Translations under genes and position numbers: made by a program
Virus record (IMG/VR): IMGVR_UViG_3300046722_000137
Span: 1-26,825 of that record
Strand: one strand, 5' to 3'
Source: a virus
Length of the DNA: 26,825 nt
Notes under the pieces: generated by a model
Told to the model about the DNA's origin: nothing
What the model saw: only the letters and a program-made list of their open reading frames with translations
The model's database searches: none
Shown: in pieces, positions 241-26,825 of the stretch
How positions within the stretch are numbered: position 1 is the stretch's first letter
Layout of the letters: each line of letters opens with the position of its first letter

Positions 241-2669
241 TCGAGGAAGTCGCGCCGCCGCCGCGCGAGGGCTACCGGGCGATGTCCTGGCCGGCCGAGC
301 TCCGGGCCGAGGACGGCCAGCCGCCGCGGCTCGTCGGACACTTCGCCCGCTATGGCGTCTTCAACGAGATCGACTCGGCCATCGAGGGTCGGTTCATGGA
401 GCGCATCGACCCGGGCGCCTTCAGTCGCACGTTCAAGAACAACCGCGACCGGATCCGGGTGCTGTTCCAGCACGGCAAGGGCTCGCTCGGCGAGTCGCCG
501 ATCGCCACCGTCACCACCCTCCGCTCGGACAGCACCGGGCCGTACTACGAGGCGGAACTGCTCGACGGCGTCCCGCCGCTCATCCTCGACGGGCTGCGGA
601 AGGGCCAGTACGGCGTGTCGTACCGCTTCCAGGTCGAGCGCGAGGACTGGGAGCCGAAGCCGACCCGCTCGCCGGCCAACCCGAAGGGCCTGCCCGAGCG
701 GACGATCCGCGAGGCCAAGGTCTTCGAGTTCGGCCCTGTCACCTTCCCGGCCGACGCAGGCGCCGACATCGCGGTCCGGTCGCTGTCCGACGAGATGGCG
801 AAGCGGACGGCATTGCCCCGCCGCTTGCGGCGCAGCATCGACGACCTGGCAGCCTTCCTGCTCGCGGACAAGGCGGCACTCCAGGCCGCCATCGACAAGC
901 TCGGCAACGGCGAGCCACTCATGGCCCAGGAAGCCGAGATGCTCGAGGCCGCGATCGAACACCTTGAGCCACCCGATGCGGACGAGGACGACATGACCAT
1001 GTCGAGCCTGCCGCGCCATAGCCCGGTTGCACCCTCCGACGAGCTCGCGGCATCGCCGCACCCCGTCGACGAGGCCCGCGATGAGCCGGACCCGCCGCCA
1101 GGTGCGGCAGTCATCGCAGCCACGGACCCGCCGGAAGGCGGGTCTTCTGATTCAGGGAGCAAGCGCATGGCCGAACCAGAGCAGAAGTACTTCACCCTCG
1201 AGGACATGGGCGCCCGCGTCCGTGAGCTCGACGAGGCGATCGGACGCGACGCCAAGGAACCCGAGCTGTCCAACGCCGAGGAGGTCGCGCACGAGGCGCG
1301 GGTCACCGAGCGGTCGGAGCTCAGGCTCAAGATGGCGAAGTGGCAGGCCCGGATCGCGGCGGCCGGCGAGTCCGCCAAGGATCCCGAGCGGACCGTCGAA
1401 CCCTACGCGCCGTCACCGGTCGCATCCTTCGTCCGCAAGACCGAGAGCGACATCTACGACTTCGACGCGGTCGATCGCGTCGCCAAGAACCTGGAGCACC
1501 GGGCCGGACTGTATCGCGACAACGCGATGCGGGCGACCGAGATCGCCTCGTTCCCGAACCCCTACACCGACGTCGAGAGGACGCGCGATCGGATCGCCAC
1601 GATCCTCGACCACCACGACACCGAGGACCACCAGTTCGGGCAGCGCGTCATGGCGACCGGCTCGCCGCTCTACCGGCGGGCGTTCCGCAAGATGCTGATG
1701 GGCCAGCCGCTGACCCCCGAGGAGCAGCGCGGCACGGCCCTCGCGGTCGGCGTCGACGGCACCGGCGGCTTCACCGTCCCGTTCGCCTTCGACCCGACGA
1801 TCATCGCCATCGGCATCCACACCGGTGCCATCAACCCGTACCGGCGAGCCTGCCGCGTCGTGCCGATCGTCGGCACCGACACGTGGAACGCCGTGACGGC
1901 CACCGTGGTCACCGCGACCCGGACGACAGAAGCGGCTCCCGCCATCGAGCAGGGCCCGACCTTCGCCCAGCCGCAGTACATCGTTACCCGCGTCCAGGCA
2001 CAGGTCACCTACAGCTTCGAGGAAGCGCAGGACCGGCCCGACATCGATACCGAGATGGCGCGGCTGATCGGCGAGGCCAAGGACAACGAGGAAGAGAACC
2101 AGTTCGCCATCGGCGTCGGCGGGGCCATCGGCCCGGCCGTGGCACCGATCGGCGTCTGTTCGGTCTACGGCACCTCGGGCGCCTACACCCAGATGGACAC
2201 CATCGGCTCGACCGTCCTCGCGGCGGCCGATGCCTACGCCGTGGAAGCGGCGCTGCCGGTCCGCCATCGGCTGACCGCGCAGTGGTTCATGAACCGCGCC
2301 AACATCCGCAAGTTCCAGGCCCTCGAGACGACGGGCGGCATCCTGTTCAACAGCATGCTCGGCTACCCGGCCGTGGGCAGTCCCGACAACGCGACCGATG
2401 GCAACACCGGCCTGAAGTTGCTGGGCTACCCGGTCAACGAGTCGCCCTCGGCCCCGACGGCGGGCACCTCGCACATCATCGTCGCGACGCTGTGCGCCCC
2501 CTCCTCCTACGTCATCGTCGAGCGGGTCGGCATGACCGTCCGCCTGATCAGCGACATCATCAACAGCTCCGCCCTGGCCACCGGCCAGTCGGCGGTGTAC
2601 GCCATGTGGCGGAACACGGCCCACCCGTTGAACGTCGACGCTGGCCGGATGCTGGATTACAAGACGTAG
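237..2669 (+). CDS. Prohead protease-major capsid protein fusion (HK97 type)
   Basis: The 810-residue product joins two head-maturation functions usually made by separate genes. Residues about 15-185 match the HK97 prohead protease family (S78-type serine protease): His79 in LFQHG and Ser128 in YGVSYRF fit the catalytic residues, and a FGPVTFPA strand follows. Residues about 190-310 are a charged, helical then proline-rich linker. Residues about 311-810 are the capsid part, with a helical, charged N-terminal segment (like a scaffolding delta domain) and an HK97-fold core starting near GVDGTGGFTVP at about 505. The protease would cut the scaffold segment during capsid maturation. The start has an ideal SD (CAGGAGGG). 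An in-frame ATG at 1167 with its own SD may yield the 500-residue capsid precursor alone. I see no frameshift; the frame is continuous. Confidence 0.9.
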   Translation: MIEEVAPPPREGYRAMSWPAELRAEDGQPPRLVGHFARYGVFNEIDSAIEGRFMERIDPGAFSRTFKNNRDRIRVLFQHGKGSLGESPIATVTTLRSDSTGPYYEAELLDGVPPLILDGLRKGQYGVSYRFQVEREDWEPKPTRSPANPKGLPERTIREAKVFEFGPVTFPADAGADIAVRSLSDEMAKRTALPRRLRRSIDDLAAFLLADKAALQAAIDKLGNGEPLMAQEAEMLEAAIEHLEPPDADEDDMTMSSLPRHSPVAPSDELAASPHPVDEARDEPDPPPGAAVIAATDPPEGGSSDSGSKRMAEPEQKYFTLEDMGARVRELDEAIGRDAKEPELSNAEEVAHEARVTERSELRLKMAKWQARIAAAGESAKDPERTVEPYAPSPVASFVRKTESDIYDFDAVDRVAKNLEHRAGLYRDNAMRATEIASFPNPYTDVERTRDRIATILDHHDTEDHQFGQRVMATGSPLYRRAFRKMLMGQPLTPEEQRGTALAVGVDGTGGFTVPFAFDPTIIAIGIHTGAINPYRRACRVVPIVGTDTWNAVTATVVTATRTTEAAPAIEQGPTFAQPQYIVTRVQAQVTYSFEEAQDRPDIDTEMARLIGEAKDNEEENQFAIGVGGAIGPAVAPIGVCSVYGTSGAYTQMDTIGSTVLAAADAYAVEAALPVRHRLTAQWFMNRANIRKFQALETTGGILFNSMLGYPAVGSPDNATDGNTGLKLLGYPVNESPSAPTAGTSHIIVATLCAPSSYVIVERVGMTVRLISDIINSSALATGQSAVYAMWRNTAHPLNVDAGRMLDYKT
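1154..1169 (+). promoter_or_regulatory. Internal ribosome binding site and in-frame start for capsid part
   Basis: AGGGAG at 1154-1159 sits 7 nt before an in-frame ATG at 1167-1169 (residue 311 of the fusion). It falls exactly at the end of the proline-rich linker and the start of the capsid part (MAEPEQKYFTLEDMG). Translation from here would give a 500-residue capsid precursor in excess over the fusion, solving the stoichiometry problem of a protease-capsid fusion. Spacing and position support it; use is inferred. Confidence 0.55.
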
Positions 2670-2689
2670 ACCGCTGACGGTTTACTGAC

Positions 2690-2727
2690 GTCGCGGGGGC
2701 GGCTCCCCCCGGTCCGTCCCCCGCGAC
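2690..2727 (+). terminator. Hairpin after the capsid gene (attenuating terminator-like)
   Basis: A perfect 10-bp stem, GTCGCGGGGG (2690-2699) with CCCCCGCGAC (2718-2727), encloses an 18-nt loop 20 nt after the capsid stop. There is no T tract, so it may be a partial terminator or an mRNA 3'-end stabiliser, not a full stop. A second strong hairpin follows the tail tube genes (10037-10066). Confidence 0.55.
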
Positions 2728-2752
2728 ACCTATCCCCCTCGAGGAGCGACGC

Positions 2753-2962
2753 ATGGCGAAGACCGCCTACTACCAGGTCCGCGAGTCGTTCGTCGGCACC
2801 TCCGACGGCGAGCCCGTGGAGTACTACAAGGGCGAGGTCATCGCCGCCGACGACCCTGCCCTCAAGCGCTGGCCCGAGAGCTTCGTGCCGCTGGTCGTCC
2901 GCGGCCAGCCGCCCGAGGTCGAGCAGGCGACCGCCGCGCCCGGCGAGAAGCGGGGCGCCTGA
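2753..2962 (+). CDS. Small head-region protein, 69 aa, unknown function
   Basis: The product starts MAKTAYYQVRESFVGTSDGE and has an early beta-rich part (residues about 5-50) and a charged alanine/glutamate C-terminus. GAGGAG at 2740-2745 is a good SD. Small proteins of this style, with a conserved tyrosine/valine-rich start, sit after the capsid gene in many siphoviruses and are thought to be structural or decoration proteins, but I cannot name a family. Its stop overlaps the next ATG (TGATG at 2960-2964), so it is translationally coupled to the next head gene. Confidence 0.7.
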   Translation: MAKTAYYQVRESFVGTSDGEPVEYYKGEVIAADDPALKRWPESFVPLVVRGQPPEVEQATAAPGEKRGA

Positions 2963-3564
2963 TGGGCTACACCTTCACCAACACGGCGGCGACCACCGCA
3001 GCTGTCCCCAACCGCTTCGTGACCAGCGTCAACATGGCGAACGGCGCCTACTCCGTCGCCAATGCCTCGCCGACATGGTCCGGCGGCTGTCTCGTCACCG
3101 CGACGATCACCGGCATCGCCGGCAACGACACGCCGGGCACGGCGACCATCGTCGGCACCGCCGTGAACGGCCAGGCCCTGACCGAGGTCCTGACCCTCGT
3201 CGCGGGCAGCCTGGCGACCAGCGCCAACGCCTTCCGTACCGTCACGTCCATCACCCAGGCGGGCTGGGTCGCCGTCAGCACCGTCGACACGATCGTGTTC
3301 GGCTGCGCTGCGGGCAACGTCGCCTGCGGATCCTCGGGCAACCTCGGGGGCGTGCTGGTCAACAACCTCGTGGCCGCCACGGTGACCATCAGCGACGGTG
3401 CGCGCACGATCATGACCATCCCTGCCTCGCAGGCGGCCGGCACCTACTACTCGTTCGGCAACCAGGGCGTCGACTTCGGCGGCCGGCTGGTCGTGGCGAC
3501 GACGAACACCAACGACATCACCGTCTTCCACACCGGCACCATGCCGAGCACCTACGCCCCGTGA
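2962..3564 (+). CDS. Probable capsid decoration or head-surface protein, 200 aa
   Basis: The product is almost entirely beta-prone, rich in Thr, Ala, Val and Gly, with few charged residues, a typical composition for phage surface and decoration proteins. Regular strands such as TATITGIAGNDTPGTATIVG suggest an Ig-like or jelly-roll beta sandwich. No signal peptide or transmembrane segment is visible. The position just after the capsid gene fits a capsid-bound protein. The ATG overlaps the upstream stop and there is no strong SD, so expression is probably coupled. Alternative: a head completion protein. I do not recognise a named family. Confidence 0.7.
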   Translation: MGYTFTNTAATTAAVPNRFVTSVNMANGAYSVANASPTWSGGCLVTATITGIAGNDTPGTATIVGTAVNGQALTEVLTLVAGSLATSANAFRTVTSITQAGWVAVSTVDTIVFGCAAGNVACGSSGNLGGVLVNNLVAATVTISDGARTIMTIPASQAAGTYYSFGNQGVDFGGRLVVATTNTNDITVFHTGTMPSTYAP

Positions 3565-3902
3565 CCGTCCCGCTGCTGTTCGCGACCGAATCGTGGCACT
3601 GCCCGCTGTGCCGCTTCGAGGAGACGATCCCGCGGATCGCCGGGCCGCATACCCGGATGCACATCTGCCCGAAGCTCAACGGGCTCACCACGCCGCTCGT
3701 CGCGGCCGGCGTCAAGGCCAAGGTCGAGCGGCGTGATCCCGAGGACTACGTCGGCGGCTCGCTGCTCACCTTCGACGACACCGGCCGCCCGGTGCAGTCC
3801 GTCGTGACGACCCGCGACGAGGGCCAGGACTGCGCCGTCTACCCGCCCACCGCCACCGCCTTCGGCACCGTCAACGAGATCAAGGAGGAACTCCGGCTAT
3901 GA
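3561..3902 (+). CDS. Small zinc-binding-like head-region protein, 113 aa
   Basis: Translation most likely starts at GTG 3561, which overlaps the upstream stop (GTGA); the reading frame stays open upstream but only as a shadow of the preceding gene. Residues about 13-36 carry CPLC followed by HTRMHIC, a Cys2...His-Cys arrangement compatible with a zinc finger. The rest is a beta-rich segment ending in an acidic helix. Its role is unknown; small zinc-finger proteins occur in actinobacteriophage head operons. The stop overlaps the ATG of the next gene, and the AAGGAGGA at 3882-3889 inside its 3' end serves that gene. Confidence 0.65.
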   Translation: MTVPLLFATESWHCPLCRFEETIPRIAGPHTRMHICPKLNGLTTPLVAAGVKAKVERRDPEDYVGGSLLTFDDTGRPVQSVVTTRDEGQDCAVYPPTATAFGTVNEIKEELRL

Positions 3903-4162
3903 CTGACACCGCGGGCGGGAAGGGCGCTGCCCACAACCCGACCATCGTCGTCGAGGACAGCTTCGCGGCGCTCGACGCCGCGGCGCAGGCCGCCCGCGAG
4001 CGCGAGGAAGCGGAACGCGCGGCGACCGAGCCGGCCCGCAACATCGCCAGCCTCGAGGCCGGCATCGCCAAGCTCGAGGGCCACCTCGCGCACCACCACG
4101 AACTGCTCGACGCGGCGAAGGCCGCGGCCGAGGCGGCACCGGCCGCGGAAGGGACCGTCTGA
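3899..4162 (+). CDS. Short coiled-coil protein in the head operon, 87 aa
   Basis: After a disordered Gly/Thr-rich start, residues about 20-80 are nearly all helix-forming (Ala, Glu, Leu, Arg, Lys) with heptad-like spacing of Leu, Ile and Ala, predicting a coiled coil. There is no membrane segment. AAGGAGGA at 3882-3889 with about 9 nt spacing is a strong SD. It could be a minor structural or assembly factor; no catalytic motif is visible. Start and stop each overlap a neighbour by 4 nt or less. Confidence 0.65.
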   Translation: MTDTAGGKGAAHNPTIVVEDSFAALDAAAQAAREREEAERAATEPARNIASLEAGIAKLEGHLAHHHELLDAAKAAAEAAPAAEGTV

Positions 4163-4656
4163 TGGCCTTCGGTGCCGTCTCCAAGATCTTCACCAGCTAC
4201 CTCCAGACGATCATCGCCAACACGTCGGCGGCCGACCTCGACACCGACGCGCTGCTCGAGATCGCGCTGTTCGACAACACCATCACGCCGCTCCAGACCG
4301 ACACCGCGGCCCATGCGGCCTACGCCGGCGTCGGCGGTCCGTGGGCGGCCGGCGGCGTCGTCGACACCGGAACCGGCGGCCCGGCCGGCTGGCCCGCGCT
4401 CGGCCGGCCGCTTGTCACCGTGGCGCTGTCGACGGCCGTGACCAACCCGATCACCTTCGGCGCCGCGTCCACCGTGAGCGCGAGCGCGACGACGACGCTG
4501 ACCAACGCCTACGGCTGCCTGTGCTACGACCACACGGCCGGGACGCCGACCGACCAGGGCATCGCGTACCTGTCCTTCAACGGCGGCAACAACGTGACCC
4601 TCGGCACGTTCACGATCGTGTGGGCGTCGGGCAACCTCTTCTCGATCACCCTGTGA
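4162..4656 (+). CDS. Phage structural protein, beta-rich, 164 aa
   Basis: The N-terminal 35 residues are helical (MAFGAVSKIFTSYLQTIIAN) and the remainder is beta-prone and Gly/Thr/Ala-rich, ending in GTFTIVWASGNLFSITL. Proteins with this layout, a short helix followed by a beta domain with a CLCYDHTAGTP-like loop, are common in head operons of high-GC siphoviruses and are taken to be structural. I cannot assign a specific role. The ATG overlaps the preceding stop (TGATG). Confidence 0.7.
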   Translation: MAFGAVSKIFTSYLQTIIANTSAADLDTDALLEIALFDNTITPLQTDTAAHAAYAGVGGPWAAGGVVDTGTGGPAGWPALGRPLVTVALSTAVTNPITFGAASTVSASATTTLTNAYGCLCYDHTAGTPTDQGIAYLSFNGGNNVTLGTFTIVWASGNLFSITL

Positions 4657-4667
4657 GGGAGGCTCGC

Positions 4668-4985
4668 GTGGCGACCGGCTCGATCTCGCTCCAGACGTCC
4701 ACCCCCACCTACCAGCAGCCCGTCACGTTCGACTGGTCCGTGTCCGGCAAGGTCAAGGGCTACCAGTACCCGCTCATCCTCGTCGAGGCGTTCCAGGGCG
4801 AGGACAAGGTCTACGCCCAGCTCGCCGCACCCGACGACGCGTTCCTGCTCGGCGGCGGCTCGTCGGAGTGGGTCAGCCGTGGCGGGGGTCCGGCCGACTG
4901 CATCGCCCGGTTGATGATCTACCCCGGCCTGCACAGCGACCCCATCCTCGAACTCGCGAGCGTGACGTTCCGCGCCGAGGGCTAG
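4668..4985 (+). CDS. Small beta-sandwich-like head protein, 105 aa
   Basis: GTG at 4668 is chosen over the in-frame GTG at 4653 because GGGAGG at 4657-4662 lies 5 nt before it. The product has alternating beta strands (FDWSVSGKVKGYQYPLILVE, ARLMIYPG, LASVTFRAEG) like an Ig-type fold and no cysteine pairs, signal or membrane segment. It lies directly upstream of the large fibre-like gene, which has its own start 29 nt downstream. Function unknown; a decoration protein or an adaptor for the following fibre is a reasonable guess. Confidence 0.65.
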   Translation: MATGSISLQTSTPTYQQPVTFDWSVSGKVKGYQYPLILVEAFQGEDKVYAQLAAPDDAFLLGGGSSEWVSRGGGPADCIARLMIYPGLHSDPILELASVTFRAEG

Positions 4986-5014
4986 GCCCGTTCCCTTCGT
5001 GAGGGGCTGACCCG

Positions 5015-7534
5015 ATGGCCGTCATCTTCCTGACCGGCTTCGACGGTCGACTCATCGAGCTCGACCAGGACGGCGCGGTCGCACGCCAGGTCGCCCTCAG
5101 CGGCACGGCCGCCATCAGCACGCTCCAGCATCGGACCGGGCCGGCGGCGCTGCGGTGCAACCCGGCCTCGGGCGCCAGCGGCTACATGCAGCTCCAGACC
5201 CCGTCGACCAAGGGCTGGGTCCACTTCGGGCTGTACATCGCGACCATGCCGAGCGTGGCGCGGGTCATCTGCGGCGCCGCCGGCTCGGGCTCCAACGTCA
5301 AGTTGAACAGCACGGGCAAGCTCGAGGCGTTCGACGGGAGCACGACGCGCGGGACGACGACCACCACCCTGACGACCGGGGTGTGGTACTGGATCGGCTG
5401 GCGGGCCGCGGCCGGGACGACGGTCCCGCTCATCCAGATCGCTGGGACGACCGAGGTCACGGGCACCGTCGCTGTCGCGCCGAACACCAACATCGGCTTG
5501 TCGGGCACCGAGGCGTCGGCCGCCGACATCTACATCGACGACGTCATCATCGACGGCGCGGGCTTCCTCGGGCCGTCCAACGTCGGCCTGCTCCTGCCGA
5601 TCAGCGATAACGGGACGCACACCGGCTGGCAGGCGGGCGCCGGCGGCACGACCAACCTGTGGCAGGGCGTCGACAACGTCCCGCCCGCCGGCCTGGCCTC
5701 GGCCAGCGAGACGAACACCAGCAACATCGAGAACACCGGCACTGCCGGGACGTATACAGCGAACCTCCAGACCTACACGACGGGTGGCGTCGGGGCATCC
5801 GACACGGTCCTCGCGGTCCAGTCGCTCATCCGCCACGGCGAGGACATCATCACCGGCACCAAGACCGGGACGGTCGGTGCGGCCACCAACCCGACCATCA
5901 CGGGTGTCGGGATCACCTTCGGCAGCGACCTCGGCGCCCACGGCGCGGATCCCGGCTCGACCTTCTGGGTCACTCAGCCGGGAACGCTGACGACCAGTCC
6001 GAGCGTGACCCTCGGCACCAGCCCGACGCTCGCCGCGGTCCGCCCGTCCGAATCGCGGACCGCCTGCATCGACTTCATGGGGCTGCTGGTCGCATGGACG
6101 CCGGCGGTCGGCTCGCCATCGACGACCGCCAACGCCGTCCTCGCCACCGGGACAGGTGCAGCTGCGAACCCGGCGCCGTCTGCAAGCCTCTACGCCGTCC
6201 TCGCGACCGCCACCGGGGCCAGCACCGATCCAGCAGCCCAACCCGGCAAGCAGGCCAACGCGGTCCTCGCCACGGCTACCGGGGCGTCGACCGATCCGAC
6301 GCTGACCAACCTGTCGAACACCAACGCCGTCCTCGCGACCGGGACCGGGAGCGCAGCGGTCGCTGGTCCGTCACTGGGCAGGGGCGCGGTCCTCGCGACG
6401 GGGACAGGAGCGAGCGCGGATCCAGCGCCGTCGCTCGGTCGGCCCGCCGTCCTGGCAACTGGAACGGGAGCCTCGGCGGACCCGGCTCCGTCGACGAGCA
6501 TCTACGCCATCCTCGCCACAGGAACGGGTGCCTCGGCGGACCCGGCCATCACGACCACCGCCGGGACGACCGTCAACGCCATCCTCGCGACCGGGACGGG
6601 AGCCTCGACGGACCCGGCATCGAGTCTCGCGCCGGGAGCGGTACTCGCGACAGGGACAGGTGCCTCGACTGATCCGGCGCTGTCCCTCGCAGCCGGTGCC
6701 GTGCTGGCGTCAGGCACGGGTGCGGCAACTGACCCGGCACCGTCACTGGGCCGCCCTGCGGTGCTCGCAACGGGGAGTGGCACAAGTATCAGTCCTGCGC
6801 CGTCTCTGGCGCCTGGGGCCGTCCTGGCGGCCGCCACGGGCACCAGCGCCGACCCCGCGATCACGATCAGCGCCGGGACGACGGCCAGCGCCGTCCTTGC
6901 GACCGGGACGGGTGCGAGCACTGACCCGGCACTGACCAACCTGTCGAATGCGAACGCCGTCCTCGCCAGCGCGACGGGCGCGAGCACCGACCCGGCCATC
7001 ACGACGTCGTCCGGGACCACCGCCAACGCGGTCCTGGCGTCGGGCACGGGCGCCAGCACCGACCCGGCGCCGACTGTCGCTCCGGGCGGGGTGACCGCGA
7101 CAGGCGCGGGCGCGAGTGCCGACCCGGCCATCATCTCGGGCGTCATCGCCAACGCCGTCCTCTCGAGCGGGACCGGGTCGAGTGCCGATCCCGCGCCCAA
7201 GGTGGCCCCCGGTGCTGTTCTGGCGACCGGCACCGGGGCCGCCACCGATCCCGCGGTGTCGCCGGGCGTCATCGCCCACGCCGTCCTCGCGACGGCACTC
7301 GCCAACGCGACCGTCGGCGGTCCGTGGGTCAGCGCATCGGCGCTGGCCGCGCTCGGGACCGCGACCGCGTTCATCCCGTTCGTCCACTCGAGCGATGCCG
7401 TGCCCGGCGGCTTCGCGCCGATCACCCGCGCGGCGGTCATCGTCCTGTCCGGCAGCGCCCTGCCCGAGCGCATCGGCATCGCGGGCGAGGTCCCGCGACC
7501 GTCCGGCGACCTGCCACGCATCCGAGGAGCCTGA
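5015..7534 (+). CDS. Large head- or fibre-associated protein: LamG-like domain plus 19 tandem repeats
   Basis: The 839-residue protein has three parts. Residues about 1-190 look like a concanavalin A-like (LamG/lectin-type) beta sandwich, including KGWVHFGLYIATMP, GVWYWIGWR and an ADIYIDDVIIDG strand. Residues about 190-370 are a second beta-rich domain. Residues about 371-770 hold about 19 degenerate repeats of 19-25 residues with core AVLATGTGASTDPA. A short C-terminal domain follows. A lectin-like fold with a thin repetitive stalk is what one expects of a surface fibre that binds sugars. Unusually it is encoded between the capsid and the connector, not after the tape measure gene, so a capsid fibre or decoration is more likely than a tail fibre. 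Copy number probably varies by recombination. Confidence 0.7.
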   Translation: MAVIFLTGFDGRLIELDQDGAVARQVALSGTAAISTLQHRTGPAALRCNPASGASGYMQLQTPSTKGWVHFGLYIATMPSVARVICGAAGSGSNVKLNSTGKLEAFDGSTTRGTTTTTLTTGVWYWIGWRAAAGTTVPLIQIAGTTEVTGTVAVAPNTNIGLSGTEASAADIYIDDVIIDGAGFLGPSNVGLLLPISDNGTHTGWQAGAGGTTNLWQGVDNVPPAGLASASETNTSNIENTGTAGTYTANLQTYTTGGVGASDTVLAVQSLIRHGEDIITGTKTGTVGAATNPTITGVGITFGSDLGAHGADPGSTFWVTQPGTLTTSPSVTLGTSPTLAAVRPSESRTACIDFMGLLVAWTPAVGSPSTTANAVLATGTGAAANPAPSASLYAVLATATGASTDPAAQPGKQANAVLATATGASTDPTLTNLSNTNAVLATGTGSAAVAGPSLGRGAVLATGTGASADPAPSLGRPAVLATGTGASADPAPSTSIYAILATGTGASADPAITTTAGTTVNAILATGTGASTDPASSLAPGAVLATGTGASTDPALSLAAGAVLASGTGAATDPAPSLGRPAVLATGSGTSISPAPSLAPGAVLAAATGTSADPAITISAGTTASAVLATGTGASTDPALTNLSNANAVLASATGASTDPAITTSSGTTANAVLASGTGASTDPAPTVAPGGVTATGAGASADPAIISGVIANAVLSSGTGSSADPAPKVAPGAVLATGTGAATDPAVSPGVIAHAVLATALANATVGGPWVSASALAALGTATAFIPFVHSSDAVPGGFAPITRAAVIVLSGSALPERIGIAGEVPRPSGDLPRIRGA
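6124..7300 (+). repeat. Tandem coding repeats (about 19 copies of a 57-75 bp unit)
   Basis: Each unit encodes (A/P)xAVLATGTGAS(T/A)DPA followed by a variable 3-11 residue linker such as PSLG or ITTSSGTTA. Units come in a short form (19 residues) and longer forms (22-25 residues), and the last one is degenerate. The DNA copies differ mostly at third positions, so the array is old enough to have diverged yet keeps its protein motif. Counted by eye. Confidence 0.9.
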
Positions 7535-7537
7535 CCG

Positions 7538-8461
7538 ATGCCGATGCCGCTCACGCTCACGGTCGACGACCCGGACGGCGTCCTCAACGCAGGCCAGTAC
7601 GGCGCGGGCGCGCTCATGCGACTGCAATGGTCCGCCACCCAGGCGGGCGTCTACGCCGACGTGTCGGGCACGGGCTCGACCCCGACGATCAACATCGTCT
7701 CGGGCCAGAGCTCCTATCCCGGCTATGACCCGGCCGGCACGACGTCGCTGTGGTATCGGACCCGGTTCGAGAATGTCGGCGCCACCCGCCTGTCGGACTG
7801 GTTCCCGTCCTTCCAGCCCGGCGGCGGGACGACCTACGCCTCGCTGGCCATGTTCCGCTCGTTCATCCGCAACCAGCAGGCGGCGTCCACGGACGAGGAC
7901 GGCGCCCTCGAGCTGCTCGCCCTCGAGGCGGCGGCCCGGGCGATCGACCGCGAGTGCGGGCGCCGCTTCGGGGTCATGAGCACGGCCACCGCGCGGGTCT
8001 ACACCGCGGGGCTCTACACCGGTCCGGTCGGCTGGCCGTTCTACGGCCGCCGCTATGCGGTCGACGTCGACGACTTCAGCGATCCCAGTCCCACGGTCGC
8101 CTTCGACTCCAACGGCAACGGCAGCTACACGATCGCCACGACGGCGTTCCGGGCGATGCCGGCCAACGCGCCCGCCTACGACGGGCGGCCGTACACCGCG
8201 CTCCTGTTCGACCTCGGGGTCCTGCCGCCGTTCAACGCCAACGGCATCCAGGTCACGGCCAAGTGGGGCTGGATCGAGACGCCGTCGGCGGTCGTGTACG
8301 CCAACCTCCTCCAGGCGTCCCGGTTCCTCAAGCGCCGCGACTCGCCCTACGGCGTTGCCGGCAGTCCTGACATGGGCAACGAGATCCGGCTCCTGGCCAA
8401 GCTCGACCCGGACGTCGCGCTGTCGCTCCGGTCGTACAGGGCCGAATGGGGCAACCAGTAG
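7538..8461 (+). CDS. Head-tail connector (gp6-like) with extra N-terminal Ig/Fn3-like domain
   Basis: Residues about 1-95 form a beta-rich domain (LTLTVDDPDG, LMRLQWSAT, SLWYRTRFENVG) like a fibronectin-III or Ig repeat. Residues about 100-300 resemble the gp6/gp15 adaptor family that docks under the portal: ASLAMFRSFIRNQQ, the helix LELLALEAAARAIDRECGRR and a C-terminal helical region ending in LDPDVALSLRSYR. Connectors are usually 100-200 residues, so the N-terminal domain is an addition that may project from the neck. The gene starts 4 nt after the fibre-like gene and overlaps the next. Confidence 0.75.
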   Translation: MPMPLTLTVDDPDGVLNAGQYGAGALMRLQWSATQAGVYADVSGTGSTPTINIVSGQSSYPGYDPAGTTSLWYRTRFENVGATRLSDWFPSFQPGGGTTYASLAMFRSFIRNQQAASTDEDGALELLALEAAARAIDRECGRRFGVMSTATARVYTAGLYTGPVGWPFYGRRYAVDVDDFSDPSPTVAFDSNGNGSYTIATTAFRAMPANAPAYDGRPYTALLFDLGVLPPFNANGIQVTAKWGWIETPSAVVYANLLQASRFLKRRDSPYGVAGSPDMGNEIRLLAKLDPDVALSLRSYRAEWGNQ

Positions 8462-8875: not shown

Positions 8876-9610
8876 GTGCCGTTCGTTCATGGCTCCAAGA
8901 GCTCGGTCTACATCGACGGGCTCGACGTGTCGCCCTATCTCAACGCCGCCGACTGGTCGACCGACCAGGACACCGCCGAGGTCACCACGTTCGGTTCCAG
9001 CTGGAAGTCGTACATCGCGGGCGAGCAGGGCGCCAAGATCAGCTTCACGGGCTTCTACGACCCGCTCGTGCTCGACCTCGAGAACCTGATCACCGACGAC
9101 TGGTCGCTGACCAACGGCGTCCTGACGTACTGCCCGAAGGGTTCGGCCATCGGCGACGACGCGCGGCTGTTCAGCGTCGGCGCCACCAACTACGGCCAGA
9201 CCTCGCCGATCGGCGGCGCGGTGGCGATCAAGTGGGAACCCGAGGTCTCGAGCCAGGTCGGCTTCGGCTCGGTGCTCCACCCGATGGGCACCGACACCAA
9301 CACCACGACCGGCGCCGGCCAGGACAACGCGGTGCAGAGCGCGACGGGCTGGATCGCCCACCTCCACGTCACCGGCATCACCGGCGGCGGCTCGTGGGTC
9401 ATCAAGCTCCAGGACTCGACGACCAACTCGGGCTTCGTGGACGTGACCGGCGCGGCGTTCACGACGACCGCGGTCAAGTCGAGCCAGCGGCTCGTGTCGG
9501 CGACGAACACGACTGTCCTGCGGCGCTGGCTCATCTACGTCGCGACCCGGACCGGCGGCAGCGCCGGCGACAGCATCCACTTCCAACTCAGCGTCGCGCG
9601 CAACAGCTAG
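8876..9610 (+). CDS. Major tail tube protein 1, 244 aa
   Basis: GTG start with TAGGAGG at 8863-8869. Residues about 1-110 carry VHGSKSSVYIDGLDVSPY and a TTFGSSWKSYIAG segment shared with the next gene. Residues about 110-140 hold the TNYGQTSPIGGAVAIKWEPE segment typical of tail tube proteins. A further beta domain (residues about 140-244) resembles an Ig-like or sugar-binding extension. The protein would polymerise into the tail tube or a tube-associated ring. It is longer than its paralogue because of the C-terminal domain. Confidence 0.75.
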   Translation: MPFVHGSKSSVYIDGLDVSPYLNAADWSTDQDTAEVTTFGSSWKSYIAGEQGAKISFTGFYDPLVLDLENLITDDWSLTNGVLTYCPKGSAIGDDARLFSVGATNYGQTSPIGGAVAIKWEPEVSSQVGFGSVLHPMGTDTNTTTGAGQDNAVQSATGWIAHLHVTGITGGGSWVIKLQDSTTNSGFVDVTGAAFTTTAVKSSQRLVSATNTTVLRRWLIYVATRTGGSAGDSIHFQLSVARNS

Positions 9611-9622
9611 GAGGAGTTCACG

Positions 9623-10030
9623 GTGGCGTTCCGACATGGTTCACGCGCCAGCATCTTGGTCAACTCGGTCGACATCTCGACGTTCTGCACGTCGCTCGAC
9701 CTCAACATCGACCAGGACAGCGCCGAGACGACGACGTTCGGCTCGACGTGGAAGTCCTACATCGCCGGCGTGTCCGGCGGCAAGCTCTCGATCGTCGGTG
9801 ACTACGACGGCACGGTGACGACCGGACCCGGTTCGGCGCTGCTGCTGGCGCAGGCCACCGCCGTCCCGGTCGCGGTCGTCCACAAGCCGGGTGGCACCCT
9901 GACCGGCCAGCGCACCAACTCGTTCAACGCGCTCATCACCAGCTACGGCGAGACGAGCCCGGTCGGCGGGGTCATCACGTTCAAGGCCGAGCTGCTGGCG
10001 AGCGGCGCGATCGCCTCGATCACCCAGTAA
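9623..10030 (+). CDS. Major tail tube protein 2, 135 aa (paralogue of the preceding gene)
   Basis: GTG start with AGGAG at 9610-9614. It shares with its upstream neighbour the FRHGSRASILVNSVDIS start, the DQDSAETTTFGSTWKSYIAG block and the ITSYGETSPVGGVITFKAE segment, so the two arose by duplication. It lacks the C-terminal extension and has the compact size of an ordinary tube protein, so it may form the bulk of the tube with the longer paralogue as a minor or decorated subunit. A very stable hairpin follows the stop (10037-10066), as often seen after major virion genes. Confidence 0.8.
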   Translation: MAFRHGSRASILVNSVDISTFCTSLDLNIDQDSAETTTFGSTWKSYIAGVSGGKLSIVGDYDGTVTTGPGSALLLAQATAVPVAVVHKPGGTLTGQRTNSFNALITSYGETSPVGGVITFKAELLASGAIASITQ

Positions 10031-10389: not shown

Positions 10390-10535
10390 TCGAGGGGACG
10401 CTCGACACGTTCGACTTCCTGCTGGCCGAGCACCTGCACAAGTCGCTGGCCGAGATCGGCGAGCTGCCCAACGACGAGATCGTGCGCTGGCAGGCGTTCT
10501 TTGTCTGGCGAGCGGCCATGAAGGAGATCGAGTGA
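10090..10535 (+). CDS. Tail assembly chaperone, long form by -1 frameshift (gpGT-like)
   Basis: The -1 frame is open across the 3' end of the short form and continues to a TGA at 10533-10535. Its downstream part (ALIEGTLDTFDFLLAEHL, SLAEIGELPNDEIVRWQAFF) has the look of the T portion of tail chaperones and no plausible start of its own. A slip at CCCCAAA (10362-10368; frame AAC_CCC_AAA) would give about 148 residues. This heptamer is not the classical X_XXY_YYZ pattern: only the P-site CCC re-pairs perfectly. Frameshifted chaperones are nearly universal in long-tailed phages, so the event is likely even if the exact site is uncertain. Confidence 0.7.
10362..10368 (+). other. Candidate -1 slippery site in the tail chaperone gene
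   Basis: CCCCAAA, read AAC_CCC_AAA in the zero frame and GAA_CCC_CAA after a -1 slip. It lies 18 nt before the short-form stop. P-site re-pairing is perfect; A-site re-pairing is not. No other homopolymeric run lies in the overlap of the two frames. Confidence 0.5.
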
Positions 10536-10972
10536 TGGCTGCCGAGGACGTCAAGCTCAGCGTCACCGGGCTGCGCGAGTTCCGCAACGCCATCAAGAAG
10601 CTCGACGCCGAGTTCCCGCGCCAGATGCGGGCCGGCTTCAAGGGCATCGCGGGCGTGCTCGCGTCCAAGATCGCGGGCAAGGTCCCGTCGGGCGCCACCC
10701 GCCGCGCCTCGATGTCGGTCAAGCCGCGGGCCGACACGACCAGCGCCAGCATCGTCGCCGGCGGCTCGCGGGCGCCGTACTACCCGTGGCTCGACTTCGG
10801 CGGCACCACCGGCCGCGGCCACACGCCCGGCAAGGCGTTCTCAGGCGCGATCCACCGCCCGTTCACGCCCGAGGGTCGCTACATCTTCCCGACGATCAGG
10901 GACAACCGACCGTACATCCAGGCGGCGGCTGCGGCCGTGCTCGAGGACGCCATCAAGAACGCGGGGCTGTAG
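10535..10972 (+). CDS. HK97 gp10-like head-tail joining protein, 145 aa
   Basis: ATG 10535 overlaps the chaperone stop (TGATG) and AAGGAG at 10521-10526 is a good SD; a GTG one codon earlier is possible. The N-terminal helical part (LREFRNAIKKLDAEFPRQMR), the basic GATRRASMSVKPRAD stretch and the YYPWLDFGGTTGRG...GRYIFPTI segment match the HK97 gp10/minor capsid family that joins heads to tails. In most siphoviruses this gene precedes the tube genes; here it lies after the chaperone, next to the tape measure gene, an unusual order. It would act in the neck of the virion. Confidence 0.7.
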   Translation: MAAEDVKLSVTGLREFRNAIKKLDAEFPRQMRAGFKGIAGVLASKIAGKVPSGATRRASMSVKPRADTTSASIVAGGSRAPYYPWLDFGGTTGRGHTPGKAFSGAIHRPFTPEGRYIFPTIRDNRPYIQAAAAAVLEDAIKNAGL

Positions 10973-12787
10973 GTGGCCTCGCAGGTCGTCGTCAACTTCA
11001 TCGGCAACGCGGCCTCGTTCGTCGGCGCGACCCAGAAGGTCGAGTCGTCGGCGGGCCAGCTCCAGACCAAGCTCACGCCGCTCGGCAAGGGGCTCGCCGC
11101 CGGTCTCGGCTTCGGCTTCGCCACCACGGCGGCCGGGCTGTTCCAGACCGCGGTCGGCAAGGTCACCGACTTCATCGGCGACAGCGTCGCCGCGTTCAAC
11201 GAGGACCAGGCGTCGGTCGCTGCGCTCGGTCAGTCGCTCAAGGCCAACATCCCGGGCTGGGACGGCAACACGACCGCGATCGAGAGGGTCATCGAGGCCC
11301 AGATGAAGCTGGGCTTCACCGACGACGAGCAGCGGTCCTCGTTGCAACTGCTGGTCGCCGCCACCCATGACGTCACCGAGGCGCAGCGGATCCAGTCCGT
11401 GGCGATGGACCTCGCCCGGTTCAAGAGCATCAGCCTCCAGGAGGCGTCGGCGGCGCTGGTCAACATCGAGGCGGGCAAGGCGCGCGGACTCGCGACCCTC
11501 GGCATCAACACCAAGGACTACGCGACGACGACCGAGCGGCTGGCCGCGGTCGAGAAGGTGGTCAGCGGGGCCGCTGCCGATTTCGCCAAGACCAACGAGG
11601 GCGAGCTGCTCATCAGCCAGGTCAAGGTCAACGAGGCGATGGAGACGTTCGGCAAGTCCATCGCGCCGGTGCAGGTCAAGGTCATGACCGAACTGGCCGA
11701 CCGGACGACGGACCTCGCCAACGTCCTCGGCATCCTCCAGGACGGGATGTCGACGAATAGCGACACGGCGACCGAGCAGGCCACCTCCGTCCTCGACCTC
11801 GCCGGTGCGTTCGGAGTGCTGATCCCGGGCCTCGGCCAGATGGCCGACGCCGCCAAGCAGGCGGCGACCGACCAGCAGAACCTCGGAGCCCAGACCGACC
11901 ACACGGGCAAGAACCTCGACGACTTGGTCACCACCGTCGCCACCGTCTCGAGCACGGCATCGGACGGCATGGACTCCTTCCACGGCCATGCGAGTGCGGC
12001 GCTCGATGCCGTCGGCGCGTCCTCGCTCCAACTGGCCCGTGACTACGACGCGAACCAGCGCCGGATCCGCGCCGCCAGCGACGCCACGGTGCACCAGCTC
12101 GTGACCGACACCAACGCCATGATCCGGGGCTACTTCGACCCGATCGAACTCGCCAACAAGCTGGCCGACCAGCGGGCGACGGCATCGGCGGACCTGTTCA
12201 GCCTGCTCCATGCCAAGAACAAGAACGCCAGCCGCGTCGCACGCGAGGCGATCGTCCAGGACCTCGACGACCAGGCGACATCGCTGGCCGGGCTCGGCGA
12301 CCAGCACAGGCTGACCCAGAAGCAGGTCGACACCTACGCCAGGGACGTGACGGCGGCCTACAAGGCGATGGGGCTCAAGGTGCCGGCCGACATCCAGAAG
12401 ATCATCGACCACCTCCACGAGGTCGCCAAGATCCACGCCGCGCCGACCGTCACCGTCAAGATCTACGGGGCGCAGGCGCTGACCACGCTCGCCAAGCAGC
12501 TCGGCTACATCGGCAACACCGACCTGTACAAGACGAACCCGTTCCGTGCCGGTGGCGGACCGGTCGCAGCGAACCAGCCGTATATCGTCGGCGAGCAGGG
12601 TCCCGAATGGTTCGTGCCGGGTTCCTCGGGCGCGGTCATGCCCAACGGCACGCTGCCCGGGTCACGATCCGGTGGCGGCGCAGGCCAGACCGTCATCAAC
12701 GTCTACGGCACCGTGATCGACGGGCCGGCGCTCGACCGCTTCACCAACGAGATCGCGCGCCGACTGCGCTACGCCCCGGCAGTCTGA
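10973..12787 (+). CDS. Tape measure protein, 604 aa
   Basis: GTG start abutting the previous stop. The start (VVVNFIGNAASFVGATQKVE) is the usual beginning of tape measure proteins, followed by a Gly/Ala-rich hydrophobic helix (residues about 37-60) and long amphipathic helices (about 65-500). The C-terminal block AGGGPVAANQPYIVGEQGPE near residues 525-545 is the family hallmark. It sets tail length and enters the cell with the DNA. At 604 residues it predicts a short tail, roughly 90 nm if the usual 1.5 angstrom per helical residue holds. It overlaps the next start by 1 nt (TGATG). Confidence 0.9.
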   Translation: MASQVVVNFIGNAASFVGATQKVESSAGQLQTKLTPLGKGLAAGLGFGFATTAAGLFQTAVGKVTDFIGDSVAAFNEDQASVAALGQSLKANIPGWDGNTTAIERVIEAQMKLGFTDDEQRSSLQLLVAATHDVTEAQRIQSVAMDLARFKSISLQEASAALVNIEAGKARGLATLGINTKDYATTTERLAAVEKVVSGAAADFAKTNEGELLISQVKVNEAMETFGKSIAPVQVKVMTELADRTTDLANVLGILQDGMSTNSDTATEQATSVLDLAGAFGVLIPGLGQMADAAKQAATDQQNLGAQTDHTGKNLDDLVTTVATVSSTASDGMDSFHGHASAALDAVGASSLQLARDYDANQRRIRAASDATVHQLVTDTNAMIRGYFDPIELANKLADQRATASADLFSLLHAKNKNASRVAREAIVQDLDDQATSLAGLGDQHRLTQKQVDTYARDVTAAYKAMGLKVPADIQKIIDHLHEVAKIHAAPTVTVKIYGAQALTTLAKQLGYIGNTDLYKTNPFRAGGGPVAANQPYIVGEQGPEWFVPGSSGAVMPNGTLPGSRSGGGAGQTVINVYGTVIDGPALDRFTNEIARRLRYAPAV

Positions 12788-14394
12788 TGGCGCTCGCGCT
12801 CGTCATCGGCGGCATCACCCAGACGACCAAGATCCTCGAGGGCTCGGCGTCGCTCAAGTACAACACGCTCGATCTGACCCTCGTCGACCCGGCGACCTTC
12901 CCGCTCGTGGGCGACGCGGTCACGCTGACCACCCCGTCGTGGACCGGTGTCGTGACCTCACGCACGATCTACCCCGGGCCGCGCGTCGGTCACAAGTACT
13001 GCACCGTCACCGCCACCAACACCAACGTCCCCTCGGCATCGGCCGGTCCGTGGGGGCTGTCGGACGTGCCGAACGGCACGACCCTGCGCGGGTACAAGGA
13101 CCTCAGGGTCACCGAGAGCGACAACCTCGACGGGACCAGCACCACGACCGGGACGGCCACGCTGTACACGACCGGGCTGTGGCCGGCCATGACGTTCACC
13201 CTGACCAACGCCGACCTCGGCTACGCCGCCTACTCGTTCAGCGTCACCGGGATGGAGGTGACCTGGAAGAAGGGCGTGCCGTTCTACAACCTGACCTTCG
13301 GCTCGCCGATCGTGACCATGTCGGTGTGGATGGCCGACACCGTGATCAACGTGGCCGACGGCACCATCAGCGGGACCAAGATCACCGACGGCTCGGTGAC
13401 CACGCCGAAGCTCGCCGCGAACAGCGTCACCACGACCGTCCTCGGCGTGGGCGACATCGGCAACAACGTCACCAACCCGGGCTTCGAGACCGGCGACCTG
13501 ACCGGCTGGGGCACGAACAACTCGGGCGGCGGCGTCACGTCCGTCTGGAGCGGCCACGTCCACGCCGGCAAGTATGCGGCCCACCTCGTCACCAATGGCG
13601 GCAACGCGGCCGTCGTCGGGACCGCGACGGCGTCGCTCGCCGGCGAGAGTGTCACCGTCGGGGCGTGGCTGTACGGCTCGGGCTCGGGCACGGCCGACAT
13701 GGGCGTCCTCTGCTACGACGGGGCAATGGGCTACCTCGGCCACCCGACGCTCCTGTCGACCGGCGTCCTGGCCGGGTCGTTCACGCACTACTCGGTCACC
13801 TCCGTCACGCTCGCGAGCACGGTCTACGTCGTGCCCTACGTGGTCGCGACCGGGGGGACCTACGTCGACGTCGACGACGTCACGCTCCAGCGCGGCTCGG
13901 TGGTCATGGACTCGAGCGGCATCACGGTGAACAACGGCGCCCTGACCGTGACCAACGGCAGTTCGATCGTCATCATCGACGGCACGTCCGACATGTTCAA
14001 GATCGCGGCGAGCGGATCCCTGTCCTCGACGTGCGCCGCATTGTCGGGCGCCAACTACTCGACCTCGGTCGCCACCGCGACACTGAGCGGCCTCGGGACC
14101 CTGGCGGCCACGCCGATGCACCTGAGTTCGATCGCCGACAACAACGGCAACACCGGCACGCGGTCGGTCGGCCACGACCTGCTGTACAACGTCCCGGCCG
14201 CCGCCTGGACCGGTGTCACCAGTGGCGGGGCCACGTCGGGGCAGGCGATCCTGCCCACGTCCATCGCGGGCAACATGGCGACGCACCTCAACGGCAGTTC
14301 GATCTGCGTCGTGCAGCTCGACGTCAACAACGCCTACACGTCCAGCGAGACCCTGTACGGCTACTACTACATCCTCGTGGAGTCGGCGCTGTGA
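12787..14394 (+). CDS. Tail tip / baseplate hub protein with carbohydrate-binding-like domain, 535 aa
   Basis: ATG 12787 overlaps the tape measure stop; the frame is open further upstream but only as a shadow. Residues about 1-100 (ILEGSASLKYNTLDLTLVDP, then VGDAVTLTTPSWTGVVTSRT) look like the hub domain of siphovirus tail tips. A linker with GTISGTKITDGSVTTPKLAA resembles trimeric fibre collars. Residues about 230-380 (NPGFETGDLTGWGTNN, then DVDDVTLQ) match family 4/9/22-like carbohydrate-binding modules. The C-terminal 150 residues are a beta-rich receptor-binding-like domain. Hub, adhesin and binding module are therefore in one chain, replacing the usual two to four tail-tip genes. It probably binds host cell-wall sugars. 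Confidence 0.75.
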   Translation: MALALVIGGITQTTKILEGSASLKYNTLDLTLVDPATFPLVGDAVTLTTPSWTGVVTSRTIYPGPRVGHKYCTVTATNTNVPSASAGPWGLSDVPNGTTLRGYKDLRVTESDNLDGTSTTTGTATLYTTGLWPAMTFTLTNADLGYAAYSFSVTGMEVTWKKGVPFYNLTFGSPIVTMSVWMADTVINVADGTISGTKITDGSVTTPKLAANSVTTTVLGVGDIGNNVTNPGFETGDLTGWGTNNSGGGVTSVWSGHVHAGKYAAHLVTNGGNAAVVGTATASLAGESVTVGAWLYGSGSGTADMGVLCYDGAMGYLGHPTLLSTGVLAGSFTHYSVTSVTLASTVYVVPYVVATGGTYVDVDDVTLQRGSVVMDSSGITVNNGALTVTNGSSIVIIDGTSDMFKIAASGSLSSTCAALSGANYSTSVATATLSGLGTLAATPMHLSSIADNNGNTGTRSVGHDLLYNVPAAAWTGVTSGGATSGQAILPTSIAGNMATHLNGSSICVVQLDVNNAYTSSETLYGYYYILVESAL

Positions 14395-22033: not shown

Positions 22034-22431
22034 AGCCTCGAGTCGCCTTCCCGAAGGACCCGGACAAGACCGGCCGCGGTCGTGCTCGCGCCCTGTATCC
22101 ACTCGAACCCTGTGAGGTATGCGGCAAGACCGGCAGCGGCCGCGGCAGCATCGACCGCCACCATCGGAATAGCGACCGACTCGACAACGCACCCGAGAAC
22201 ATCGCGTTCCTCTGCCGCAGGCACCATCACGCCGCACACAAACTGACCGACGGCAAGGTCGGCGGCGGTCCGCGACCACGTATCGCTGCGCTGCTGCACG
22301 ACCGGGCCATCGTGTCGGCTATCGAAGCGGCTGCGCTTCGTGATGCGGGACTGACTCAGGCTGCGATCGCGGCACGGATGGGCGTCAATCCCAAGACCGT
22401 CTCGCGCTGGTTCGGGAAGTACGAGCTATGA
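22030..22431 (+). CDS. HNH-type protein 2 with C-terminal helix-turn-helix, 133 aa
   Basis: GTG start overlapping the RlpA-like stop. Residues about 25-75 form an HNH-like zinc domain: CEVC (28-31), DRHH (42-45), Asn57 in PENIAFLCRRHH, Cys62. Residues about 100-130 (LRDAGLTQAAIAARMGVNPK, TVSRWFGKYE) are a canonical helix-turn-helix. The pairing suggests a sequence-specific nicking or homing nuclease. Its stop overlaps the methyltransferase ATG, so the two may be a unit. Confidence 0.75.
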   Translation: MKPRVAFPKDPDKTGRGRARALYPLEPCEVCGKTGSGRGSIDRHHRNSDRLDNAPENIAFLCRRHHHAAHKLTDGKVGGGPRPRIAALLHDRAIVSAIEAAALRDAGLTQAAIAARMGVNPKTVSRWFGKYEL

Positions 22432-23072
22432 CGCCGTACTACCAGGACGACCTCGTCACCATCTACCACGGCGACTGCCGGGAGTGGATGCCCGAGGCGG
22501 ACGTCATCGTCACGGACCCGCCGTACGGCATCGGCTGGTCGCGCGGCATCAATAACGCCCGCCGCAGCAAGGCTCACATCGGCATCGTCAACGATGAGGA
22601 CACGTCGGCCCGTGACGCGGTTCTGGCAACGTTCCGTGGTCCTGCCATCGTGTTCGGCTCGTTCTACGCGCCGTTCCCTTCAGGCGTCCGGCAGGTGCTC
22701 GTTTGGCATAAACCGGCCGACTCCGGTCTTGTCGGGTCGATTACCGGTTACCGTCGTGACGCGGAGCCCATCTTCCTGGTCGGACCGTGGCCGGTTCGGA
22801 CTGTCGAGTGGTCGAGTGTGTTGCGAACAACTGCGGGTCAAGCGTTCACTGCGGCGGAGACAGGGCATCCGCACACAAAGCCGGTGGCGCTCATGGAGTG
22901 GCTCGTCAGTCGGACGACCGGCATCATCCTTGACCCCTTCATGGGCAGCGGCACGACCCTCGTCGCCGCCAAGTCCCTCGGCCGCAAGTCCATCGGCATC
23001 GAGATCGAAGAACGCTACTGCGAGATAGCTGCTCAACGCTGCTCGCAGGAAGTTCTCGGGTTGCTCGGATGA
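22428..23072 (+). CDS. DNA amino-methyltransferase (N6-adenine or N4-cytosine), 214 aa
   Basis: The catalytic motif DPPYGIGW (residues 30-37) precedes the AdoMet-binding motif DPFMGSGTT (169-177), followed by GRKSIGIEIEERYCEIAA. This order is the beta class, and the DPPY form favours N6-adenine without excluding N4-cytosine. The small size, 214 residues, leaves little room for a target recognition domain. It would modify phage DNA, probably against host restriction. No restriction gene is adjacent. It overlaps both neighbours by 4 nt. Confidence 0.9.
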   Translation: MTPYYQDDLVTIYHGDCREWMPEADVIVTDPPYGIGWSRGINNARRSKAHIGIVNDEDTSARDAVLATFRGPAIVFGSFYAPFPSGVRQVLVWHKPADSGLVGSITGYRRDAEPIFLVGPWPVRTVEWSSVLRTTAGQAFTAAETGHPHTKPVALMEWLVSRTTGIILDPFMGSGTTLVAAKSLGRKSIGIEIEERYCEIAAQRCSQEVLGLLG

Positions 23073-26786: not shown

Positions 26787-26825
26787 CGACGGGTGCTTGC
26801 AAACCCCCAGCCTTGCACCGGAACC

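What the first reader, a model, noticed from the sequence alone, without database searches (positions are those of the whole stretch)
5015..7534. Lectin-like protein with 19 tandem repeats encoded between capsid and connector
The AVLATGTGASTDPA repeat stalk joined to a LamG-like head resembles a sugar-binding fibre, but it is located among head genes. A head-attached adhesin could help virions stick to cells, particles or mucus-like matrices.
Basis: partly seen in the sequence, partly recalled or inferred. Interest (0 to 1): 0.5.

Follow-up and report, generated by a model that had tools for sequence, protein, structure and literature searches.

The report
Phage head-cluster lectin-like fibre with swappable stalk
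This phage gene encodes a sugar-binding-type domain joined to a long stalk of about 19 repeats; relatives keep the domain and its place among the capsid genes but carry quite different stalks, which suggests an adjustable adhesive fibre on or near the virus head.

Summary
ORF 5015-7534 (839 aa) lies between an HK97-type protease/capsid fusion gene and the head-tail adaptor. Residues 1-369 are a two-domain module whose first domain is modelled as a concanavalin A-like (LamG-type) jelly roll. Residues 374-755 are 18 full repeats of 20, 22 or 24 residues; a degenerate 19th follows.

New here: the module belongs to a wider phage family. Of 24 modules examined, 13 sit in the same slot: major capsid gene upstream, head-tail adaptor downstream (the contig ends first in one). 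Stalk repeats differ in sequence between lineages but mostly keep a 20- or 24-residue period. One phage with a 93%-identical module carries a different stalk, the DNA match ending at the junction; another has exactly one unit fewer. Six module relatives lie downstream of the tape-measure gene, none with such a stalk: three are little more than the module, three continue into other sequence.

Most likely this is a virion adhesion fibre on head or neck, with a lectin-like domain and an exchangeable beta-rich shaft. Virion location, anchoring end and sugar binding are inferred, not shown.

The parts
5015..7534 (+). lectin-like repeat protein, 839 aa (whole gene)
   Evidence: ORF; frame conserved in L002, L003, L004, L012
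5015..5578 (+). domain 1, residues 1 to ~188: concanavalin A-like/LamG-type jelly roll; position 10 is D or E and positions 175, 176 are D in 17 of 17 members, as expected of the usual structural calcium site
   Evidence: model; VIA-align Z 16.9 to Cip1; columns; Cip1 calcium ligands from passages of PMC3764139
5579..6121 (+). domain 2, residues ~189-369: beta-rich second domain of the conserved module, with low-confidence stretches at 223-234 and 278-315
   Evidence: model; alignment A2
6134..7279 (+). repeat stalk, 18 full units of 20/22/24 aa (commonest core AVLATGTGASTDPA plus variable linker), residues 374-755
   Evidence: regular strands in a low-confidence single-sequence model
6952..7023 (+). 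one 72-bp (24-aa) unit that relative L003 does not have
   Evidence: placement ambiguous by some bases
7280..7531 (+). degenerate 19th unit and C-terminal tail, residues 756-839; no likeness seen by eye in L004 or L012
4668..4985 (+). 105-aa protein (GTG start assumed), gene directly upstream; shared with L004 as one DNA block with the module (4646-6125, 93.9%)
   Evidence: homologue in L012
4162..4656 (+). 164-aa protein of PHROG 644 (unknown function), homologue in the same order in L012
237..2669 (+). prohead protease fused to HK97-type major capsid protein, upstream landmark
7538..8461 (+). head-tail adaptor (PHROG 442, matched from residue 101) with extra N-terminal sequence, downstream landmark

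Best explanation
The gene encodes a structural adhesion fibre of the virion, attached to the capsid surface or to the neck next to the adaptor. An N-terminal two-domain module, the first domain a concanavalin A-like jelly roll, binds a glycan or another surface ligand. A long, thin, beta-rich shaft built of ~20-residue units holds it away from the virion (or itself carries contact surface). Shafts are interchangeable cassettes: lineages replace the entire repeat array while keeping the module, and array length changes by whole units. It would help the particle dwell on cells or surrounding polymers before the tail engages. Shown: real coding gene, fold class of domain 1 (by model), repeat architecture, conserved head-cluster slot, a different stalk behind a 93%-identical module, a one-unit length difference. 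Inferred: presence on the virion, head/neck rather than tail attachment, which end is anchored, shaft structure, sugar binding, the benefit.
For: Fold: Z 16.9 to Cip1, about 15.4 to trypanosomal sialidase lectin domains, 15.4 to arabinanase AbnA. Slot, capsid upstream and adaptor downstream: window, L004, L012, Galactica, Hiyaa, Spocter, Keanu (annotations), L016, L017, L025 (adaptor, capsid), L020, L033 = second copy in G003; capsid upstream with the contig ending inside the gene in L019. The capsid genes are of different types (PHROG 10 in window, L004, L012, L033; PHROG 212 in L016, L017, L025). Stalk: lag 20 among the top lags in window, L003, L012, L016, L017, L018, L022, L025, Galactica, Keanu, lag 24 in L004 and L020, in spite of different repeat sequences; 14-16 in L033. 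Replacement: window-L004 DNA match around the gene covers 4646-6125 at 93.9% and stops at the module/stalk junction. One unit fewer in L003. A Streptomyces member has a further domain (residues 408-581) shared with Kromp gp22 and Ponzi gp58, 'glycoside hydrolase'. Precedent: the phiCbK head filament attaches the virion to the flagellum; its candidate gp76 has a lectin-type domain and tandem duplications (passages of PMC3556154) and lies between capsid and adaptor genes.
Against: No virion proteomics or imaging of a stalked member was found. Hiyaa gp13 and Galactica gp11 are annotated 'minor tail protein'. The module occurs downstream of the tape measure in six relatives, so it is not head-specific. 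L018 is a stalked copy beside the terminase gene rather than in the slot, and L014 has a stalk in an undetermined setting. Sugar binding could not be tested. The window protein itself has no Pfam LamG hit. Stalk structure rests on a single-sequence model with pLDDT about 50-75 there and lower towards its C-terminal part. The phiCbK candidate gp76 is not a detectable homologue and was itself not detected in virions in that study (passages).
Confidence: 0.48

Rival explanations
1. Tail or side-tail fibre that happens to be encoded in the head cluster: a receptor-binding protein of the tail.
For: Annotated 'minor tail protein' in Hiyaa and Galactica; the module occurs downstream of the tape measure in six relatives, one of them (L034) with a tail-fibre PHROG match in its C-terminal half.
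Against: The stalked form keeps the slot between capsid and adaptor in 13 of 24 modules, with capsid genes of different types; the six forms after the tape measure have no such stalk.
Confidence: 0.22
2. Reverse orientation: the conserved module (with the 105-aa neighbour) is the virion anchor and the variable stalk is the exposed part, acting as a brush or spacer, or as the binding surface.
For: Module and 105-aa gene form one 93.9% identical DNA block while stalk and capsid differ, as would fit an anchor with its partner; C-termini look different in window, L004 and L012 (by eye).
Against: L004 has the same module with a diverged capsid gene (72% DNA identity in its first part); the module also occurs after the tape measure and almost alone (L013, L027), where a capsid anchor makes no sense; its fold is that of carbohydrate-active proteins; a different gene precedes it in the Streptomyces members.
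Confidence: 0.17
3. Not part of the finished virion: an assembly factor or a secreted/cell-surface protein made during infection.
For: The L012 homologue of the 105-aa neighbour starts with a signal-peptide-like stretch (judged by eye).
Against: It lies among structural genes in the 19 modules placed in slot or downstream of the tape measure; no signal-like start in the lectin itself (by eye).
Confidence: 0.08

Closest known systems
phiCbK head filament and its candidate gp76 (PMC3556154, passages)
   Same: Large repeat-rich protein with a concanavalin A-like domain, tandem duplications, encoded between major capsid and head-tail adaptor; role proposed is head-borne attachment.
   Different: No detectable homology of gp76 to the module (E=16); gp76 is glycine-rich, 2,799 aa; the true module homologue in phiCbK is D865_gp315, downstream of the tail genes.
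Hiyaavirus 'minor tail protein' (Hiyaa gp13, Galactica gp11; PHROG 14065, unknown function)
   Same: Homologous module (30% identity to Galactica over 305 columns), repeat stalk of period 20, same slot.
   Different: Different repeat sequence, an additional central domain, a different small gene upstream.
Head-borne adhesins: T4 Hoc, T5 pb10, phi29 gp8.5, SPP1 gp12 (review PMC7602432, passages)
   Same: Head-borne proteins thought to enhance binding to cell surfaces through carbohydrates.
   Different: Ig-like, coiled-coil or collagen-like folds rather than a jelly-roll domain on a beta-repeat shaft.
Cip1 / ConA-like polysaccharide lyases and sialidase lectin domains (fold only)
   Same: Fold of domain 1, acidic residues at the expected calcium-site positions.
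   Different: About 14% sequence identity; no evidence for catalysis.

Membership tests
Concanavalin A-like (LamG-type) jelly-roll fold | ConA-like beta-sandwich | tested here: met
   Predicted model, residues 4-188, Z 16.9 to 3zyp; all 50 rows shown are at Z 13.1 or more
Concanavalin A-like (LamG-type) jelly-roll fold | Structural calcium site | tested here: inconclusive
   Position 10 D/E and 175, 176 D in 17 of 17; geometry not examined
Pfam Laminin_G_3 (PF13385) | Profile match of the protein itself | tested here: not met
   No hit for the window protein or module; 1 of 17 members of A2 matches at 3.6e-5
Lectins / carbohydrate-binding modules | Binds a sugar | not testable with these tools
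   Fold does not show function
Phage head fibre / decoration protein | Gene in the head cluster near the major capsid gene | tested here: met
   Window and 12 further modules
Phage head fibre / decoration protein | Present on the capsid surface | not testable with these tools
   Needs virion proteomics or imaging
Tail fibre / tail-tip receptor-binding protein | Gene downstream of the tape-measure gene | tested here: not met
   Window gene precedes the tail genes; six unstalked module relatives do lie there
phiCbK head filament candidate gp76 | Homologous domain | tested here: not met
   gp76 E=16 with the module HMM, whereas D865_gp315 scores 9.1e-32
PHROG 14065 / 2448 (unknown function) | Profile match | tested here: inconclusive
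   12 and 13 of the 17 members of A2 match, the window protein itself does not

The most novel reading that the evidence does not exclude
Phages with capsids of different types share a head- or neck-borne fibre system in which a fixed lectin-like module is combined with freely exchangeable tandem-repeat shafts of near-constant ~20-residue rung size, with whole-shaft swaps and unit gain or loss tuning reach and surface chemistry; the same module is moved, without the shaft, to the tail tip.
Probability: 0.35. Interest if true: 0.68.

Novelty: new variant of a known kind. Interest (0 to 1): 0.52.

Why it matters
Head-borne adhesins are documented in only a handful of model phages (review passages). 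This family gives a searchable signature (module plus repeat stalk before the head-tail adaptor) by which candidate head or neck fibres can be found in phages where they are now called 'minor tail' or 'hypothetical', including cultured Streptomyces phages in which the idea can be tested directly. Shafts of different sequence with the same repeat length are also material for the question how fibrous folds are replaced in evolution.

Tried and rejected
Chance or mis-assembly as the cause of the repeats: rejected for the gene as such. L002 carries the same array with 1 residue different, though it may come from the same or a related sample, and unit pairs are nearly saturated at synonymous sites. 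The one-unit difference in L003 could still be an assembly effect, as these are metagenome contigs.

Recent slippage as origin of the array: rejected by the same saturation.

PDB sequence search with the module profile: no hit up to E=1. tblastn of the full protein in 50,697 phage records: no hit at 1e-3; module alone: one weak hit, Galactica, E=0.3, later supported by pairwise BLAST (6e-14), by synteny and by intermediate relatives.

Single-sequence AlphaFold of the whole protein: mean pLDDT 41; module not folded, stalk mostly 50-75 with regular strands to about residue 670; not used for a fold search. An adenovirus-like triple beta-spiral shaft is only a recalled resemblance, untested.

Repeat-region scan of viral contigs: of 52 pattern matches only L002's contig (as L006) and L003 were confirmed.

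Periodicity was not found in the truncated L019 (best lag 57, z 2.9), so it counts as in the slot but not as a shown stalk; L009 (Spocter) was not put through that test. L023 and L026 have low-complexity rather than 20-residue stalks; L014 has lags 14 and 29.

Undetermined setting: L013, L014, L026; L018 lies beside the terminase; L023 lies upstream of a head protease. Dropped as same or near-same before counting: L001, L002, L003, L005, L006, L008, L021, L024, L029, L030. A partial module match in G002 (5082-5642) was not examined or counted.

The sequence after the second domain in L015 and L028 matches only PHROG 14065 and PHROG 5313, both of unknown function; calling it tail-hub-like rests on its place right after the tape measure and on my eye.

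Clostridial toxin binding domains appear among the fold matches; this is the generic ConA-like fold, not kinship, and nothing of them was fetched.

Paper searches (15 of 49 listed) showed no title on this family (open-licence PMC library only; listings, not full texts).

Full report
1. The gene. ORF 5015-7534 encodes 839 residues. Nineteen unit starts occur at residues 374-756: 18 full units of 20, 22 or 24 residues and a degenerate last one. All full units have even length. Lag-20 autocorrelation is z=15.3 against 30 shuffles. Between units synonymous sites are nearly saturated (pS 0.645) and nonsynonymous change is low (pN 0.178; 153 pairs, first 14 codons): an old array held by selection on the protein, not a recent slippage product. 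The module shows dN 0.040 and dS 0.153 against L004.

2. Surroundings. Upstream: protease-capsid fusion (237-2669), then small genes 2962-3564, 3899-4162, 4162-4656 (PHROG 644) and 4668-4985. Downstream: head-tail adaptor 7538-8461, tail proteins 8876 and 9623, a neck-type protein 10532-10972, and 10973-12787, taken as the tape measure from position, length and its two PHROG hits of unknown function, which also hit the tape measure of L033. G000 is a virus record of 26,825 bases. In L004 terminase and portal precede the same cluster.

3. Fold. An alignment of 17 modules, the window included (A2), gave a model with mean pLDDT 71.8 and pTM 0.77. Domain 1 matches concanavalin A-like jelly rolls: Cip1 Z 16.9 (rmsd 2.7, 176 residues), glucuronan lyase 15.5, sialidase lectin domains about 15, AbnA 15.4. 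Position 10 is D or E and 175, 176 are D in 17 of 17; in Cip1 the structural calcium is held among others by acidic residues of the N-terminal loop and the last strand (PMC3764139, passages), so a calcium site is likely but was not checked in coordinates. Viral models with alignments longer than domain 1 include proteins of Sphingomonas phage Kharn and Providencia phage Kokobel1. Fold shows no function.

4. The family. Scans of viral and genome contigs, annotated phages and second copies give 24 distinct modules: window, L004, L007, L009, L010, L012-L020, L022, L023, L025-L028, L033, L034, phiCbK D865_gp315 and Fanboy. Further weak phage hits (other Caulobacter and Brevundimonas phages, uncultured LR756511) were not examined.

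5. Placement of the 24. Thirteen have the major capsid gene upstream, and twelve of them the head-tail adaptor downstream: window, L004, L012, Galactica L007, Hiyaa L022/L008, Spocter L009, Keanu L010 (annotations), L016, L017, L025, L020, L033; in the thirteenth, L019, the contig ends inside the gene. The capsid is of PHROG 10 type in window, L004, L012 and L033 and of PHROG 212 type in L016, L017 and L025. Six lie downstream of the tape measure: L015, L028, L027, L034, phiCbK D865_gp315, Fanboy. Five are elsewhere or undetermined: L013, L014, L018, L023, L026.

6. Stalk and slot. Of the 13 slot members, 10 were shown periodic by autocorrelation (window, L004, L012, L016, L017, L020, L022, L025, Galactica, Keanu) and L033 by 22 motif starts spaced 14-16 residues or about a multiple of that; Spocter was not tested, L019 is truncated and gave no signal. 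Of the six downstream members none has a 14-24-residue stalk: D865_gp315 (362 aa) and Fanboy (334 aa) are little more than the module, L027 ends at 365 aa, its stop codon inside the last part of the profile match, L015 and L028 run on without clear periodicity (best z 3.2 and 2.2) into sequence matching PHROGs of unknown function, and L034 has a low-complexity Ser/Thr linker and then sequence with a tail-fibre PHROG match. In a FastTree of 23 modules, L015 and L028 group with the seven Streptomyces-type slot members apart from all others (local support 1.00), so the split between head-slot and downstream forms is not one deep division; many deep nodes are unsupported.

7. Stalk exchange. Around the gene, window and L004 share 93.9% DNA identity over 4646-6125, i.e. 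the 105-aa gene plus the module; the match stops at the stalk. The first part of the capsid gene is 72% and the adaptor 76.5% identical. L004's stalk has a different repeat (PTAGALTLTGSVPTVTA type, mostly 22-26 residues). L012's repeat (ATGTGAANQP) resembles the window's; other lineages look different by eye: ETDTAQPL..RRKT (Streptomyces), SGIGSLTATGG (L018), SIQSVTFSQPTATI (L020), TKSLKYTVK (L033), YAQAQTQIK (L014). L003, 98.5% identical over 418-7068, has one 24-residue unit fewer and two substitutions in this protein; the breakpoint lies in similar unit-boundary DNA. One phage can hold two modules with different stalks (L018 and L033 in G003).

8. Mechanism. The parsimonious reading is an adhesion fibre. 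For head or neck attachment speak the conserved slot and the phiCbK precedent: its head filament contacts the flagellum, and candidate gp76 lies between capsid and adaptor genes (PMC3556154, passages). gp76 is not a homologue by HMM: an analogy, not membership. For ligand binding speak the fold and the re-use of the module near tail genes. The Douge study (PMC13033339, passages) found glycan-binding domains on several virion parts, and gut phages carry modular Ig-like adhesins (PMC13370021, passages). Against, or open: 'minor tail protein' annotations, absence of proteomics, and uncertainty over which end is anchored; the shared block of 105-aa gene plus module would fit an N-terminal anchor.

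9. Verdict. Observation confirmed; interpretation partly supported. New variant of a known kind (phage head/neck adhesin), interest 0.52.

Noticed in passing
window 26403-26813: 97.6% identical to the first 411 bases of L005, which continues into the same terminase and portal genes as L004; the window end and start probably adjoin in the genome, with terminase and portal missing from the record.
   Followed up: partly
window 8876-9610 and 9623-10030: Two successive tail-tube-type genes matching the same PHROG families, the first about 110 residues longer.
   Followed up: no
window 12787-14394: Protein after the putative tape measure with a weak CBM_4_9 carbohydrate-binding match (E 5.7e-4, below the Pfam cut-off): a possible second sugar-binding protein on the tail side.
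   Followed up: no
window 7538-7831: The head-tail adaptor match begins at residue 101; the residues before it have no Pfam hit.
   Followed up: no
window 22428-23072 and 24189-25028: Two DNA methyltransferase-like genes (DPPYG and PCQPFSN motifs, read by eye).
   Followed up: no
L013 8341-8991: Upstream of an unstalked module: a protein with an internal signal-peptide-like stretch and a QEIGHALGMPDH motif resembling secreted metallopeptidases (by eye).
   Followed up: no
L023 1425-4181: Directly upstream of the module gene, a second protein of 918 aa made mostly of Ser/Thr repeats.
   Followed up: no
L020 and L033, C-termini: Two different stalks end in similar tails of short PY-x-K-type repeats (by eye), possibly a common anchor.
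   Followed up: no
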